A program made the translations under genes and the position numbers. The notes below the pieces were generated by a model that was not told the origin of the DNA, ran no database searches, and saw only the letters and a program-made list of their open reading frames with translations. Source: a virus. From it: 29,868 bases of DNA. The stretch covers positions 1 through 29,868 of the IMG/VR virus record IMGVR_UViG_3300020203_000068. One strand, written 5' to 3'. Shown here piece by piece: positions 3,488 to 29,141 of the stretch. Each line of letters opens with the position of its first letter. Positions within the stretch are counted from its first letter, which is position 1.

Positions 3488-3776
3488 GACATCCTATTTT
3501 TTTCCAAATAGGAATCATGTCTTTTTCCCATAAACTATAATTATCTAAATTATTATCTACTCTATATTTAGCAGCTTTATATAATTCCTGATTTGTATTA
3601 AATCCTATCCCATGATCGATTAATATATGTATAAAGTTATTCAATTGACAAAGATTTATAAAATATTTTTCAATCCAATCATACTCAAAATCAGAAATAA
3701 CTGGATGATCAAGAACATAATATCTATATCGATGTTCTAAGATATTATCTTGTAATTTATTTAAATACTCAACCAT
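3459..3776 (-). CDS. Stand-alone LigA domain Ia-like protein
   Basis: A 105-residue protein. Residues 5-40 (LNKLQDNILEHRYRYYVLDH, then PVISDFEYDWIEKYF) match the pattern of domain Ia of bacterial NAD-dependent DNA ligase, which clamps the NMN half of NAD; the tandem Tyr at 19-20 and Asp/Tyr at 29-33 fit the conserved NAD-contact set. The nucleotidyltransferase, OB-fold, zinc, HhH and BRCT parts of a ligase are absent. It may be a partner subunit for a split ligase elsewhere in the genome, an NAD/NMN binder, or a decoy. It ends convergently over the zinc-finger gene and closes the long leftward operon. Confidence 0.55.
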   Translation of the reverse strand: MVEYLNKLQDNILEHRYRYYVLDHPVISDFEYDWIEKYFINLCQLNNFIHILIDHGIGFNTNQELYKAAKYRVDNNLDNYSLWEKDMIPIWKKIGCPKYSISHNN

Positions 3777-3790
3777 ATAACTTTAAATTC

Positions 3791-12475: not shown

Positions 12476-12658
12476 ATGTCTTATAAAAATTACGAGGAAT
12501 TTCTTAAAAATCATTTATGTCCACATTGTCATATAGGATTTTTAGAAAAGTATAGTGATTCAAATATCTTATTTAAGTGCTATTTTTGTGGATTTACTAG
12601 AGAAATTAAAAAAGAGATAAATCCTTTACATCGGATTATAAATGGAAAACCAAAATAA
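12476..12658 (+). CDS. Zinc-ribbon protein, 60 aa
   Basis: Two Cys pairs, CPHC (15-18) and CYFC followed by Gly (34-37), about 15 residues apart, form a zinc ribbon. The rest is basic. Its end overlaps the start of the terminase ATPase gene by 17 bases. It may help DNA recognition in packaging, by context only. Confidence 0.6.
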   Translation: MSYKNYEEFLKNHLCPHCHIGFLEKYSDSNILFKCYFCGFTREIKKEINPLHRIINGKPK

Positions 12659-13457
12659 AATATCTCCAGAATCTGCTAGAGCCATGTTGTGGAATCAAGG
12701 CATTTTGCATTGGCAACTAAAGCCTGTCCAAAAAGAACTTTATAATAGCTATATTGATTGTAAAGAGAAAATAGTTGTCTGGAATTGTGCGAGACGTTTA
12801 GGAAAGTCCTATACGTTATGTATAATAGCGCTAGAAACTTGTTTAAAAAAGTCAAATTCTTTAGTTAAGTATTGTTGCGCTAAGCAAAAAGATGCTAGAA
12901 ACATAATTAGACCTCTTATTAGAGAGATCATTGAGACCTGTCCAATAGAACTTAAGCCTGAGTATAAGACCCAAGAAGGTGCTTGGGTATTTCCTAATGG
13001 TTCTCGTATTGAACTTATTGGCTTAGATGGTGGAAGAGCTGAAAGTAATCGAGGTGGTAGCTCAAATCTCGCTATTATTGACGAGGCTGGCTTAGTTGGG
13101 GATCTTCCTTATATTGTTACAAGTATTATTTTGCCAACTACTGCAACTACCAAAGGTAAGATTATTTTAGCAAGCACTCCTCCTAAATCCCCAATTCATC
13201 CTTTTATTACTAAATATCTTAATAAAGCTAGGATTGAAGGTAATTTAGTAACCAAAACAATTTACGATAATCCAAATATTGATAAAGAGGAATTTGACAA
13301 ATTAGTAGAAGAATCTGGTGGTCTTGATAGCGTCGATTTTCGAAGAGAATATTTGTGTGTTGAAGCTAATACTCTCTTAACTATAAAAGATCCTGAAGGT
13401 AAAATTAGACAATTAACAATAAAAGAATTAAAATATGAATTATCTAAAAATACATAA
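12642..13457 (+). CDS. terL: Large terminase ATPase domain ending in an N-intein
   Basis: 271 residues. The ATPase has a Walker A variant ARRLGKS (50-56), Walker B AIIDEA (144-149) and coupling motif ASTPPKSP (about 177-184). At residue 239 the extein stops at RREYL and an intein begins with Cys: CVEANTLLTIKDPEGKIRQL, then TIKELKYELSKNT and a stop, a 33-residue N-intein. Joining RREYL to the CHIIKDSNYAIIPEF of the next ORF restores a normal terminase sequence. The fragment length is close to that of the atypically split AceL-TerL intein. The last 23 bases overlap the start of the HNH ORF in another frame, so the N-intein cannot simply be read on. Confidence 0.85.
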   Translation: MENQNKISPESARAMLWNQGILHWQLKPVQKELYNSYIDCKEKIVVWNCARRLGKSYTLCIIALETCLKKSNSLVKYCCAKQKDARNIIRPLIREIIETCPIELKPEYKTQEGAWVFPNGSRIELIGLDGGRAESNRGGSSNLAIIDEAGLVGDLPYIVTSIILPTTATTKGKIILASTPPKSPIHPFITKYLNKARIEGNLVTKTIYDNPNIDKEEFDKLVEESGGLDSVDFRREYLCVEANTLLTIKDPEGKIRQLTIKELKYELSKNT

Positions 13458-14418
13458 CTCTATCATTGAAAGAAGCAAAAATAGAACGCCTCCTAAATAC
13501 ACAGAAGAACATCATATTTTACCAAGATGTTTAGGTGGAACTGATGAGAAATCTAATTTAATTTTATTAACTCCTGAAGAACATTTTATAATTCATCTTT
13601 TATTAATAAAAATTTATCCAAACCAATCAAAATTAATTTTTGCTGCAAATATGATGACTGTTTCAAATTCCCTTCAAAAAAGAGTATCTAATAAGTCTTA
13701 TGGGTGGTTAAAGAGATTACATAGAATAGCAGCTTCAGAAAACGGCAAAAGAAATAAAGGTCGTAAGTGTACAAAAGATCAATGTGAAAATATTAAAAAC
13801 GCTAAATTAGGATCTAAAAATCCAATGTATGGAAAGACAGGAAAAAATCATCCTGGTTATGGAATAAATAGAAAAGGGCAAGGTAAAGGAATTAAAAAAG
13901 GCCCAAGAAAAGTAAAAGTTCAACGAACTGAGCAATGGAATAAACGTTTTTCTGAAAGCAGAAAAAAAGGTAATAAAACTGCTTTTAATAAACAAGGTTA
14001 TCAGATATTAACTCCAACAGGATTTCAAGATTTTGATGGTGTTAGTTATAATGGTTTAGTCCAATGCCTAGAATTTATTACGGAAAATAATAAAAAAATT
14101 CTTGTAAGTACAAAACATAAATTTAATGAAGAGAAACTAGCAAAAGAATACAAAATTGGTGATGTCTTATTAACTATAGATGGTATAGAAAAAATAATAC
14201 AAATTAATAAATTTCCAGGAAAAAGACACGTATATGACATATTAGATGTTAAAAATGGAAATGTATTTTTAGGTAATGATATAATTAATCATAATTGTCA
14301 CATAATTAAAGATAGTAATTACGCGATCATACCTGAGTTTAATGAAGAACTTAAAAAAATAATTGTGAAAGAAACTGTAGAGCTCCTTTTTATGATGCTT
14401 ATGTTGGTATGGACATAG
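13435..14418 (+). CDS. HNH/NUMOD3 homing endonuclease fused to C-intein and terminase C-extein
   Basis: 327 residues. 1-60: HNH core (MNYLKIHNSIIERSKNR, EEHHILPRCLGG, N41, H50). 110-150: NUMOD3-type repeats (NAKLGSKNPMYGK, NHPGYG). 187-287: intein remainder beginning GYQILTPTGFQDFDG, with block B STKHKF (Ser225, His228), block F HVYDILDV and VFLGNDIINHN ending His286-Asn287; the usual block F His is Asn. From Cys288 the C-extein CHIIKDSNYAIIPEFNEELK runs on until the frame is lost near 14380 and ends 14418. The product should trans-splice with the 12642-13457 product, releasing the endonuclease-linked intein. HNH and intein parts have no stop between them. This design is inferred from motifs; splicing has not been shown here. 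Confidence 0.82.
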   Translation: MNYLKIHNSIIERSKNRTPPKYTEEHHILPRCLGGTDEKSNLILLTPEEHFIIHLLLIKIYPNQSKLIFAANMMTVSNSLQKRVSNKSYGWLKRLHRIAASENGKRNKGRKCTKDQCENIKNAKLGSKNPMYGKTGKNHPGYGINRKGQGKGIKKGPRKVKVQRTEQWNKRFSESRKKGNKTAFNKQGYQILTPTGFQDFDGVSYNGLVQCLEFITENNKKILVSTKHKFNEEKLAKEYKIGDVLLTIDGIEKIIQINKFPGKRHVYDILDVKNGNVFLGNDIINHNCHIIKDSNYAIIPEFNEELKKIIVKETVELLFMMLMLVWT

Positions 14419-15062
14419 GTATGAAAGATTTAACTGTTGTGTTATTTGGCTGGTATGATTTTCTTAAAGCAAAACTTATTGTTGAGGATGAATTTGTTAT
14501 TCACGGACAAAAATTTAATACTAGTACTTTAGCCGATGGAATTAAACAAAAAGAGGCTGAAGTATTTACAGACAAAATAACTGGAGAACAGCGTATTCCA
14601 TTTCTTAGAATTAGCGATAATAATTTAATTGTTATTAAAGATTTGTGGGATTTGCATGGTTTAAGATTTTTACCTACTAGAAAAGATGATGCTGACGCAG
14701 CACTTAATAAAGTAAGAGTGATGCTTGAAAATGAACAAATACTTATTAATCCTAGATGTAAAACTTTAATAACTCATTTAGAAGCTGGTATTTGGAATAA
14801 AGCTAAAACAAGTTTTGATCGATCTGCAGATAATGGCCACTTTGATGCTATCGATAGTTTAAAATATTTAATAAGAAATGTTCAGATTAGTAAAAATCCT
14901 TATCCAAAAGGCTATTTAGATAAATATAATGAAAGTCATTTTGAGAGGCCCGGCTATAAAAACTCACAACACCATGAATTTAGTAAGATTTTTAACACAC
15001 GAAAATCTTCATCTGAATCAAATAAGCAACTTGTAGACCTACTAACTCCTAAAAAAAGATAA
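14409..15062 (+). CDS. terL: Large terminase nuclease domain (separate frame)
   Basis: 217 residues starting MDIGMKDLTVVLFGWYDF, the first strand and first catalytic Asp of the RNase H-like nuclease of large terminases; later HLEAGIWNKAKTSF and HFDAIDSLKYLIRN supply the conserved Asp near the end. In this frame, sequence upstream of the ATG reads APFYDAYVG, which belongs to the same domain, so the ATG is not the natural start of the fold. The ATG overlaps the stop of the previous ORF. Either the terminase is translated as separate parts by re-initiation, or one base is missing near 14380. Confidence 0.85.
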   Translation: MDIGMKDLTVVLFGWYDFLKAKLIVEDEFVIHGQKFNTSTLADGIKQKEAEVFTDKITGEQRIPFLRISDNNLIVIKDLWDLHGLRFLPTRKDDADAALNKVRVMLENEQILINPRCKTLITHLEAGIWNKAKTSFDRSADNGHFDAIDSLKYLIRNVQISKNPYPKGYLDKYNESHFERPGYKNSQHHEFSKIFNTRKSSSESNKQLVDLLTPKKR

Positions 15063-23540: not shown

Positions 23541-23867
23541 ATGAGAATACAGATTAAGAACAGATGGACTTCCTCAGTAATTTTTGAATGCACAGCAGAT
23601 TCGATGAAAATGGCCGTTGAAATAGCAGTGGCCCAAGCAGTTTCTTTACAGTACGCAGATCTAGCTGGAAAAATCCTCATTAATGCAAATCTAGCTGGAG
23701 CTAGCTTAGTTGAAGCAGATCTAACTGGAGCAATGCTAGATGGAGCTAATCTATCGGGAGCAAATCTAACTGGTTGCCGGATGTTTGGGGCAATTTTAAC
23801 CGGAATTAATCTAACAAACGCCATTTTAACTAACGCGGATTTTACTGGAACTTTAGGGTATCAGTAA
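23541..23867 (+). CDS. Pentapeptide-repeat protein, 108 aa
   Basis: From about residue 38, A(D/N)L-x-x five-residue repeats run without break (LQYADLAGKILINANLAGAS, LTGAMLDGANLSGANLTG, LTNAILTNADFTGTLGYQ), forming a right-handed square beta-helix about 14 coils long. The short N-terminal part (IKNRWTSSVIFECTADSMKM) is a strand-rich cap. Role in the virion or as a DNA mimic cannot be told; context is structural. Confidence 0.8.
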   Translation: MRIQIKNRWTSSVIFECTADSMKMAVEIAVAQAVSLQYADLAGKILINANLAGASLVEADLTGAMLDGANLSGANLTGCRMFGAILTGINLTNAILTNADFTGTLGYQ

Positions 23868-26980: not shown

Positions 26981-28381
26981 ATGAAGATAAAAGATTTTAT
27001 AATTGAATTAGACACGAACAAAAATATTTGTAGAGATTTTATTAAACAGAATCACTATACTAAAAAATCTGGGTCTATACGCTATGGTTTTTTATTAAAA
27101 TTAAATAATCAAGTACTTGGTGTATGTACTTTTTCTAATCCTTCTAGACAAAATATTCGTGTTCCTAAAGGATATAAAACTATTGAATTAAATAGACTAG
27201 TATTGATAGATGACACACCAAAAAATTCTGAATCCTATTTTATTTCTAAATGTCTAAGATGGCTTAAAATAAATACAGATTATGATTCAATTGTTACTTT
27301 TGCAGATCCTACTCAAAATCATGTCGGAACAGTTTATAAAGCTAGTAATTTTAAGTATTTGGGAAAAACTCCAGAAAATTATCATTATGAAGATGTAGAT
27401 AAAAATAGAATACATAAAAAACAAGTTTGGGACAGGGCAAAAAAGAATAATAGAAAAGAAATAGAACAAGCAAAGTTAGAAAACCTCCTTAAAATACTAG
27501 AGTTACAAAAATATAAGTTTGTCTTTTATTTAAAAGAAACTTCATTAAATATAATATACGGATTACAAGATCCTTTAACATCTGTGATTAGATATGTCGG
27601 CAAATCTACAACAGGTTTAAATAGACCTTATGAACATTTTAAACCTTCTTCTTTAGAAGGGCACAATAGAAAACAAAATTGGATTAAATCCTTATATAAT
27701 CAACAACTAAAACCTAAAGTTATAGTGATAGAGAACGTATTTAATTATGATTTATTAAATGATAAAGAAACATTTTGGATTAAATACTATAATGATCTTG
27801 GAAATGATCTAACAAACGAAACAGAAGGAGGCGAAGGAACGCAAGGTTACATCCATTCAGAAGAAACAAAAGAAAAATTATCGCAAATTAGAGCACAATA
27901 CCACAAAATAAATCCTCAAAAACTTCCTATTGGAATGAAAATACCAAAAATTAATAAACTTATTGATAATATAGAAAATAGAGAGTGTTCTAAGTGTTTC
28001 AAATATAAAGAACTACAAAATTATACTTTTTTAGAGGATAGAAATGTTTTTGATTGCTATTGCAAAAAATGTCGATATGTCATATCTACTATATGGAAAC
28101 AAGAAAATCCCTCTCCTCTTCTTCCAGAAGCGGAATATAACGCTTCTAGACTTCCTGGTGCAATAGCTGGTGGTGAAGCTTCTAAACGTCCTGAAAGACG
28201 CCTACAGACTTCCAAAATGAATTCTAAAGCCGTAATTGGCACCCATAATGAAACTAATGAAGTTATTAAATTTAACTCAGCTATTAAAGCTAAAGAGGCC
28301 GGATTTCAAAATAGTAATATTGGACAAGCTATTAAATATAAGAGATCTTATAAAGGATATGTGTGGAAATTTGATATCTAG
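26981..28381 (+). CDS. Mom-like GNAT domain fused to GIY-YIG homing endonuclease with NUMOD1
   Basis: 466 residues. 1-150: GNAT-fold domain like the phage Mom DNA-modification family: HYTKKSGSIRYGF, ELNRLVLIDDTPKNSESYFI, FADPTQNHVGTVYKASNFKY. 190-280: GIY-YIG nuclease (IIYGLQDP, RYVGKST, conserved Glu in DKETFWIKYY). 285-305: NUMOD3-type GYIHSEETKEKLSQI. 335-365: Cys cluster (CSKC, CYCKKC). 376-414: higher-GC insert-like linker. 417-466: NUMOD1 ending SYKGYVWKFDI. Mom-type enzymes modify adenine in DNA; the rest is a typical mobile nuclease. It lies between a terminator and a phage promoter, like a cargo gene. Alternatives: a mobile fusion, or a modification-plus-nicking enzyme. Confidence 0.75.
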   Translation: MKIKDFIIELDTNKNICRDFIKQNHYTKKSGSIRYGFLLKLNNQVLGVCTFSNPSRQNIRVPKGYKTIELNRLVLIDDTPKNSESYFISKCLRWLKINTDYDSIVTFADPTQNHVGTVYKASNFKYLGKTPENYHYEDVDKNRIHKKQVWDRAKKNNRKEIEQAKLENLLKILELQKYKFVFYLKETSLNIIYGLQDPLTSVIRYVGKSTTGLNRPYEHFKPSSLEGHNRKQNWIKSLYNQQLKPKVIVIENVFNYDLLNDKETFWIKYYNDLGNDLTNETEGGEGTQGYIHSEETKEKLSQIRAQYHKINPQKLPIGMKIPKINKLIDNIENRECSKCFKYKELQNYTFLEDRNVFDCYCKKCRYVISTIWKQENPSPLLPEAEYNASRLPGAIAGGEASKRPERRLQTSKMNSKAVIGTHNETNEVIKFNSAIKAKEAGFQNSNIGQAIKYKRSYKGYVWKFDI

Positions 28382-28939: not shown

Positions 28940-29141
28940 AAGTAGAAAAAAACCCTATTTTACTGATCAACAAAATGGAAGTACGAAATTTCCTAAAAGA
29001 AAAGCAAATCGAGCTGTCAGAAACAAACCCGAAGATGAAGCTCCACAAAATGGTAAAGCTTATCGAAAAGAGTCAAATAGTTGGGACATTAGGGATTTCA
29101 GTTTTAGGTGTCCTGAATTAAAAAAAGCATATAGAAAATGA
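28932..29141 (+). CDS. Conserved small basic phage protein, 69 aa
   Basis: MSRSRKKPYFTDQQNG, then ANRAVRNKPEDEA, KAYRKESNSWDIRDFSFRCP. This SRSRKK ... SWDI-D(Y/F)-F pattern is seen in many tailed phages as a small protein of unknown function within the structural region. Confidence 0.7.
   Translation: MSRSRKKPYFTDQQNGSTKFPKRKANRAVRNKPEDEAPQNGKAYRKESNSWDIRDFSFRCPELKKAYRK

What the first reader, a model, noticed from the sequence alone, without database searches (positions are those of the whole stretch)
13356..14298. Atypically split terminase intein with an in-frame HNH endonuclease at the split
A 33-residue N-intein starting Cys at 13356 ends the terminase ATPase ORF. The next ORF begins with a full HNH/NUMOD3 endonuclease and runs without a stop into a ~101-residue C-intein ending His-Asn before Cys at 14296. 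The split point (after ~30 residues) is like the natural AceL-TerL split intein, also in a terminase, rather than the common split inside the endonuclease loop. An endonuclease fused to the N-side of the C-intein would couple gene spread to protein splicing in a new way. Seen: both fragments and motifs. Known: split TerL inteins exist. Inferred: trans-splicing and homing.
Basis: partly seen in the sequence, partly recalled or inferred. Interest (0 to 1): 0.92.

Follow-up and report, generated by a model that had tools for sequence, protein, structure and literature searches.

The report
Split terminase intein with fused nuclease
A phage gene for its DNA-packaging motor is broken in two by a self-removing protein element that carries its own DNA-cutting enzyme on one half; the anatomy is real and recurs in unrelated phages, so it is a nice variant of a known kind of mobile element rather than a new one.

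Summary
ORF1 (12642-13457) is TerL-N plus a 33-aa N-intein. ORF2 (13435-14418) is an HNH/NUMOD3 endonuclease read in frame into a ~100-aa C-intein ending His-Asn before Cys. Searches with each half hit the solved atypically split Cat intein best (CatN 2.4e-6, CatC 3.9e-7); the fold search also finds VidaL. Intein-free orthologues fix the junctions; the joined exteins (493 aa) match an intact 492-aa TerL at 66%.
The fusion is no accident. L047, with only 43% TerL identity, has the same HNH-C-intein fusion and 23-nt ORF overlap; L048 has the HNH as a separate ORF there. Two genomes 99.6-99.9% identical to the window lack 480 bp (160 codons) of the HNH, leaving the C-intein in frame with the HNH start codon.
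'New way' is not supported. Aeromonas phage PX29 is already annotated as N-intein / GIY-YIG plus C-intein; 6 of 84 split inteins in my set have a nuclease fused to the C-intein, of about four types. Functionally it equals a classic nuclease-carrying intein. Trans-splicing and homing remain inferred.

The parts
12642..13355 (+). TerL N-extein (ATPase part, 238 aa)
   Evidence: Pfam Terminase_6N 3.8e-10; aligned to intein-free TerL L011
13356..13457 (+). N-intein, 33 aa from Cys1, with stop codon 13455-13457
   Evidence: Profile of 18 N-inteins hits CatN 6dsl_A at 2.4e-6
13435..13457 (+). 23-nt overlap of N-intein end and ORF2 start
   Evidence: Same 23-nt overlap in L047 and L048 (1197-1219)
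13435..13986 (+). HNH homing-type endonuclease with NUMOD3-like tail, fused in frame to the C-intein
   Evidence: tblastn to phage homing endonucleases, alignment, predicted fold with pLDDT of 90 or more for residues 1-80
13458..13937 (+). 480 bp (160 codons) absent from two near-identical genomes, L002/G002 and L003/G001
13984..14295 (+). C-intein, about 100-104 aa, ending His-Asn
   Evidence: CatC 3.9e-7; Foldseek to gp41-1, Cat and VidaL inteins; alignment A2 with invariant block-B His, His, Asn and +1 Cys
14296..14418 (+). TerL C-extein start (CHIIKDSNYAII...), in frame to about 14377 and then frameshifted
   Evidence: One A missing after 14377 against G001 and G002
14409..15062 (+). Rest of TerL (RNase H-like nuclease part) in another frame
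   Evidence: Continuous with the C-intein ORF in L002/L003 (382 aa); aligned to L011

Best explanation
The terL gene carries an atypically split intein of the AceL/Cat type. ORF1 makes TerL-N with a short N-intein; ORF2, started from the overlapping ATG at 13435, makes HNH-C-intein-TerL-C. The two intein halves associate, splice TerL-N to TerL-C (FRREYL-CHIIK) and leave an excised complex of N-intein and HNH-C-intein. The HNH is a homing endonuclease that cuts intein-free (or HNH-free) terL and lets the element spread by gene conversion. Shown by sequence: both halves, junctions, open fusion, conserved recurrence and absence of the HNH in sister genomes. Inferred: trans-splicing, release of active nuclease, homing.
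For: Both halves hit the Cat intein, and the fold search ranks gp41-1, Cat and VidaL inteins on top. Intein-free orthologues have the uninterrupted site: L011 FRREFR|CHVIL, L013 FRREYL|CEF, L016 FRREYM|CEN. Exteins joined give 493 aa, 66% identical to L011. The same fusion in L047 has a complete C-extein, a 23-nt overlap, 39% HNH and 55% C-intein identity. In L002/L003 the in-frame 160-codon deletion leaves the HNH ATG as the only start for the essential TerL C-half, and the window has no ATG/GTG/TTG between 13825 and the C-intein. HNH motif residues are conserved with phage homing endonucleases.
Against: No splicing or cutting data. terL in this copy is frameshifted at 14377, so the window allele as read could not give full-length TerL. 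Pfam HNH and NUMOD3 are below cut-off in the window protein. Sister genomes do without the HNH. The NUMOD tail and linker are poorly predicted, probably flexible.
Confidence: 0.82

Rival explanations
1. The HNH is an ordinary free-standing phage endonuclease gene that sits in the split and happens to run into the C-intein; the C-intein is mainly made from its own internal start, so the fusion does nothing.
For: 61 of 84 non-redundant split inteins have separate ORF(s) between the halves; L048 has the same HNH family as its own ORF; L047 has an ATG just before its C-intein (2323).
Against: In the window and in L002/L003 no usable internal start lies at the C-intein. The frame is kept in L047 and through the 160-codon deletion. 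Fusions recur with GIY-YIG, VSR-like and DUF7487-type nucleases.
Confidence: 0.12
2. The element is decaying: a once mobile HNH is being lost (deleted in sister genomes) and this terL copy is a dead or mis-read allele.
For: 480-bp HNH deletion in two genomes 99.6-99.9% identical; 1-nt deletion at 14377 only in the window.
Against: The HNH frame and motif residues are intact in the window. The deletion keeps the C-intein frame and the complete TerL. A single missing base in one metagenome contig may be a read or assembly error.
Confidence: 0.25
3. The HNH serves DNA packaging next to TerL, as some phage HNH proteins do, rather than homing.
For: Position beside terL; packaging HNH proteins are known (reference title in PMC10448857).
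Against: It is of the MNY..HHI/NUMOD3 homing type found free-standing near many unrelated genes, is absent in near-identical genomes, and intein-free relatives have no HNH inside terL.
Confidence: 0.03
4. The HNH segment in the window is an assembly artefact.
For: Only one of three near-identical contigs has it.
Against: L047 independently has the same arrangement with the same 23-nt overlap; the reading frame is open across both joins.
Confidence: 0.03

Closest known systems
AceL-TerL / GOS-TerL / Cat atypically split inteins
   Same: Short Cys1 N-intein (25-37 aa) and ~104-aa C-intein in phage TerL; both halves match the Cat consensus (PMC11766414)
   Different: Here the C-intein carries an HNH endonuclease at its N-terminus. 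Whether the native AceL/GOS loci carry nucleases was not checked.
Aeromonas phage PX29 genes 17A/17B
   Same: TerL-N with N-intein, overlapping ORF with endonuclease fused to C-intein and TerL-C; annotated so in the record
   Different: GIY-YIG (SegE-like) instead of HNH; T4-type terminase
L047 (IMGVR_UViG_3300015360_000493)
   Same: Same HNH-C-intein fusion, same site, same 23-nt overlap, complete C-extein
   Different: TerL only 43% identical; has an ATG just before the C-intein
Fractured genes of Dassa et al. 2009 (NAR 37:2560; cited, not held)
   Same: Split intein halves with a homing endonuclease between them
   Different: From my memory those have mostly free-standing VSR-like nucleases; here an HNH is fused to the C-intein
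Full-length inteins with an embedded homing endonuclease
   Same: Nuclease made in one chain with the intein and freed by splicing
   Different: Chain broken before the nuclease; nuclease sits after ~33 residues, before block B, not at the usual loop

Membership tests
Atypically split TerL intein (AceL/Cat kind) | N-intein of about 25-37 aa with Cys1 | tested here: met
   33 aa; family profile hits CatN 2.4e-6
Atypically split TerL intein (AceL/Cat kind) | C-intein of about 100 aa with block-B His, terminal His-Asn and +1 Cys | tested here: met
   CatC 3.9e-7; A2 invariant columns
Atypically split TerL intein (AceL/Cat kind) | Insertion in TerL that leaves an intact TerL when removed | tested here: met
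   L011, L013, L016 uninterrupted at the site; joined exteins (C-extein from L002) 66% identical to L011
Atypically split TerL intein (AceL/Cat kind) | Trans-splicing activity | not testable with these tools
   Needs co-expression
Fractured gene with split intein | Endonuclease located between the intein halves | tested here: met
   HNH lies between N-intein stop and C-intein
Fractured gene with split intein | Endonuclease is a free-standing ORF | tested here: not met
   Fused in frame to the C-intein, no usable start between
HNH/NUMOD3 phage homing endonuclease | HNH catalytic motif | tested here: met
   HHI..N..H aligned to phage homologues; Pfam HNH only 0.013
HNH/NUMOD3 phage homing endonuclease | NUMOD3 DNA-binding motif | tested here: inconclusive
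   0.062, below cut-off in the window; passes in L047
HNH/NUMOD3 phage homing endonuclease | Cuts the element-free allele and promotes its own transfer | not testable with these tools
   Only presence/absence in near-identical genomes seen
Full-length bifunctional intein | One continuous chain from intein start to end | tested here: not met
   Stop at 13455-13457; ORF2 in another frame

The most novel reading that the evidence does not exclude
Endonuclease genes of several unrelated types repeatedly invade inteins at the atypical split point, bringing their own start codon and so breaking the gene. The nuclease may then fuse to the C-intein, and later in-frame loss leaves a nuclease-free split intein. 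The window (HNH present) and L002/L003 (HNH core deleted) would be the last step caught within one near-clonal phage population, giving an origin for AceL-like split inteins.
Probability: 0.45. Interest if true: 0.62.

Novelty: new variant of a known kind. Interest (0 to 1): 0.5.

Why it matters
It ties the origin of atypically split inteins, which are useful protein-labelling tools, to repeated invasion by different homing endonucleases at one point. Near-identical phages with and without the nuclease make the gain/loss cycle testable. The fused forms are also natural examples of a C-intein tolerating a large N-terminal domain, which matters for split-intein engineering.

Tried and rejected
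N-intein alone against PDB: no hit, solved with a family profile. Genome-contig scan with the C-intein: none, so no bacterial host or prophage was found. TerL C-part against phage records: no match. HNH tree: one origin of the intein-linked HNHs is neither shown nor ruled out; window HNH groups weakly with L158, L047 near L048. Co-conversion signature around the HNH: only two differences within 440 bp downstream, too few to claim. Microhomology at the 480-bp deletion ends: none. Literature on PX29's intein: the genome paper does not mention it; Dassa 2009 is not held. Chance read-through was rejected because of L047 and the in-frame deletion.

Full report
What is there. The window is an IMG/VR virus record of 29868 bases. 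ORF1 at 12642-13457 is the ATPase part of a phage large terminase (Terminase_6N, 3.8e-10) that ends in a 33-residue N-intein beginning with Cys at 13356. ORF2 starts at the ATG 13435, overlapping ORF1 by 23 nt, and runs without a stop through an HNH endonuclease, a NUMOD3-like tail and a C-intein ending in His-Asn before Cys at 14296. Shuffling the 285-codon stretch never leaves it open (0 of 5000).

Both intein halves are real. Residues 184-289 of ORF2 match the solved C-half of the consensus atypically split intein, CatC, at 3.9e-7. A profile of 18 N-inteins of this kind, including the window's, finds CatN first at 2.4e-6. An AlphaFold2 model of HNH plus C-intein (mean pLDDT 74, two confident domains joined by a poorly predicted tail) matches gp41-1, Cat and VidaL inteins best in the PDB. 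In an alignment of ten C-inteins, the block-B His, the terminal His-Asn and the +1 Cys are invariant.

Junctions. Related phages without the intein read straight through: L011 FRREFR|CHVIL, L013 FRREYL|CEFIP, and a phage of Silvanigrella, FRREYM|CENV. Joining the exteins gives 493 residues, 66% identical to the 492-residue TerL of L011 (the C-extein was taken from L002 because of the frameshift below).

A lesion in this copy. Against two genomes that are 99.6-99.9% identical over most of the window (G001/L003 and G002/L002), the window lacks one A after 14377, so ORF2 leaves the TerL frame and the nuclease part continues at 14409-15062 in another frame. It may be a read or assembly error or a dead allele. 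Intact copies exist in L002 and L003.

The natural deletion. The same two genomes lack window 13458-13937, exactly 480 bp or 160 codons of the HNH, with no microhomology at the ends. What remains is MNYLKIH-KNKRFSESRKKGNKTAFNK-C-intein-TerL-C, 382 aa, complete. MNYLKIH is the family start of these HNH proteins (MNYxxIY), so the likely order is HNH first, then loss; this is an inference. With the HNH gone, the only start for the TerL C-half in L002/L003 is the HNH start codon. Since the DNA around that start is the same, it should also be used in the HNH-positive form, and the window has no start codon between 13825 and the C-intein.

Independent recurrence. L047 has the same fusion in a phage whose TerL is only 43% identical: N-intein 33 aa, 23-nt overlap, HNH-NUMOD3 (NUMOD3 passes the Pfam cut-off), C-intein 55% identical, complete C-extein. 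L048 has the same site, the same 23-nt overlap and the same HNH family, but the HNH has its own stop and the C-intein its own ATG. A tree of 64 HNHs neither shows nor excludes one origin.

How common. Among 84 non-redundant split inteins of this family with both halves located, 61 have separate ORF(s) between the halves, 14 have none, 6 have an endonuclease fused to the C-intein and 3 have one fused to the N-intein (automatic; the set was seeded from this window and is not unbiased, and at least one further N-intein fusion, Vibrio phage 1.244.A, was seen by reading). The six are the window and L047 (HNH), Aeromonas phage PX29 (GIY-YIG, SegE-like), Vibrio phage Va1 and L082 (VSR-like; DUF559 in Va1, L082 by eye only), and L097 (DUF7487 type).

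Known or new. The PX29 record already says '17A ... contains putative N-intein' and '17B ... contains putative GIY-YIG endonuclease and C-intein'; its accession is in a 2010 genome paper that does not discuss the intein. A split intein with an HNH gene between its halves was reported in the PolB of phage MIJ3 (PMC6892783). So the layout is a known kind. What is new here, as far as the held literature shows, is the HNH fused to the C-intein of an atypically split TerL intein, its recurrence in divergent phages, and the near-identical pair with and without it.

Mechanism. Most likely ORF1 and ORF2 are translated from one message, the halves splice TerL together, and the HNH leaves with the excised intein. 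Making the nuclease in one chain with the intein is what ordinary full-length inteins do, so the claim of a new coupling is not supported. Splicing and homing are inferred, not shown.

Noticed in passing
window 26981-28381 (+): 466-aa ORF with a Mom family DNA-modification domain (Pfam 1.8e-33, residues 13-187) followed by a NUMOD3-like stretch (below cut-off) and a region that reads like GIY-YIG: possibly a Mom gene fused to or invaded by a homing-endonuclease-like gene.
   Followed up: partly
window 3488-3784: A segment of ~297 bp that differs completely from the ~203 bp at the same place in the near-identical genome G001; in the window it encodes most of a short NAD-ligase-like ORF on the minus strand (Nlig-Ia 2.1e-4, below cut-off). 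The G001 segment is richer in GC and may be a structured RNA, possibly intron-like.
   Followed up: partly
L025 and L038 (Campylobacter phages CP21 and vB_CcoM-IBB_35): One terL holds several inteins at different sites: a cis mini-intein near the Walker A motif, a split intein with a nuclease ORF, and in IBB_35 a further N-intein followed in frame by an HNH.
   Followed up: partly
L028, L030, L032, L033: Mirror arrangement: endonuclease fused to the C-terminal side of the N-intein (GIY-YIG in VP-1 and 1.244.A, TnsA-like in Thanatos-2; the long ORF of G2494 has a similar tail).
   Followed up: partly
window around 29085-29108 and 23615-23622: Small clusters of substitutions, and at 29085-29108 compensating indels, against otherwise identical genomes G001 and G002.
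   Followed up: no
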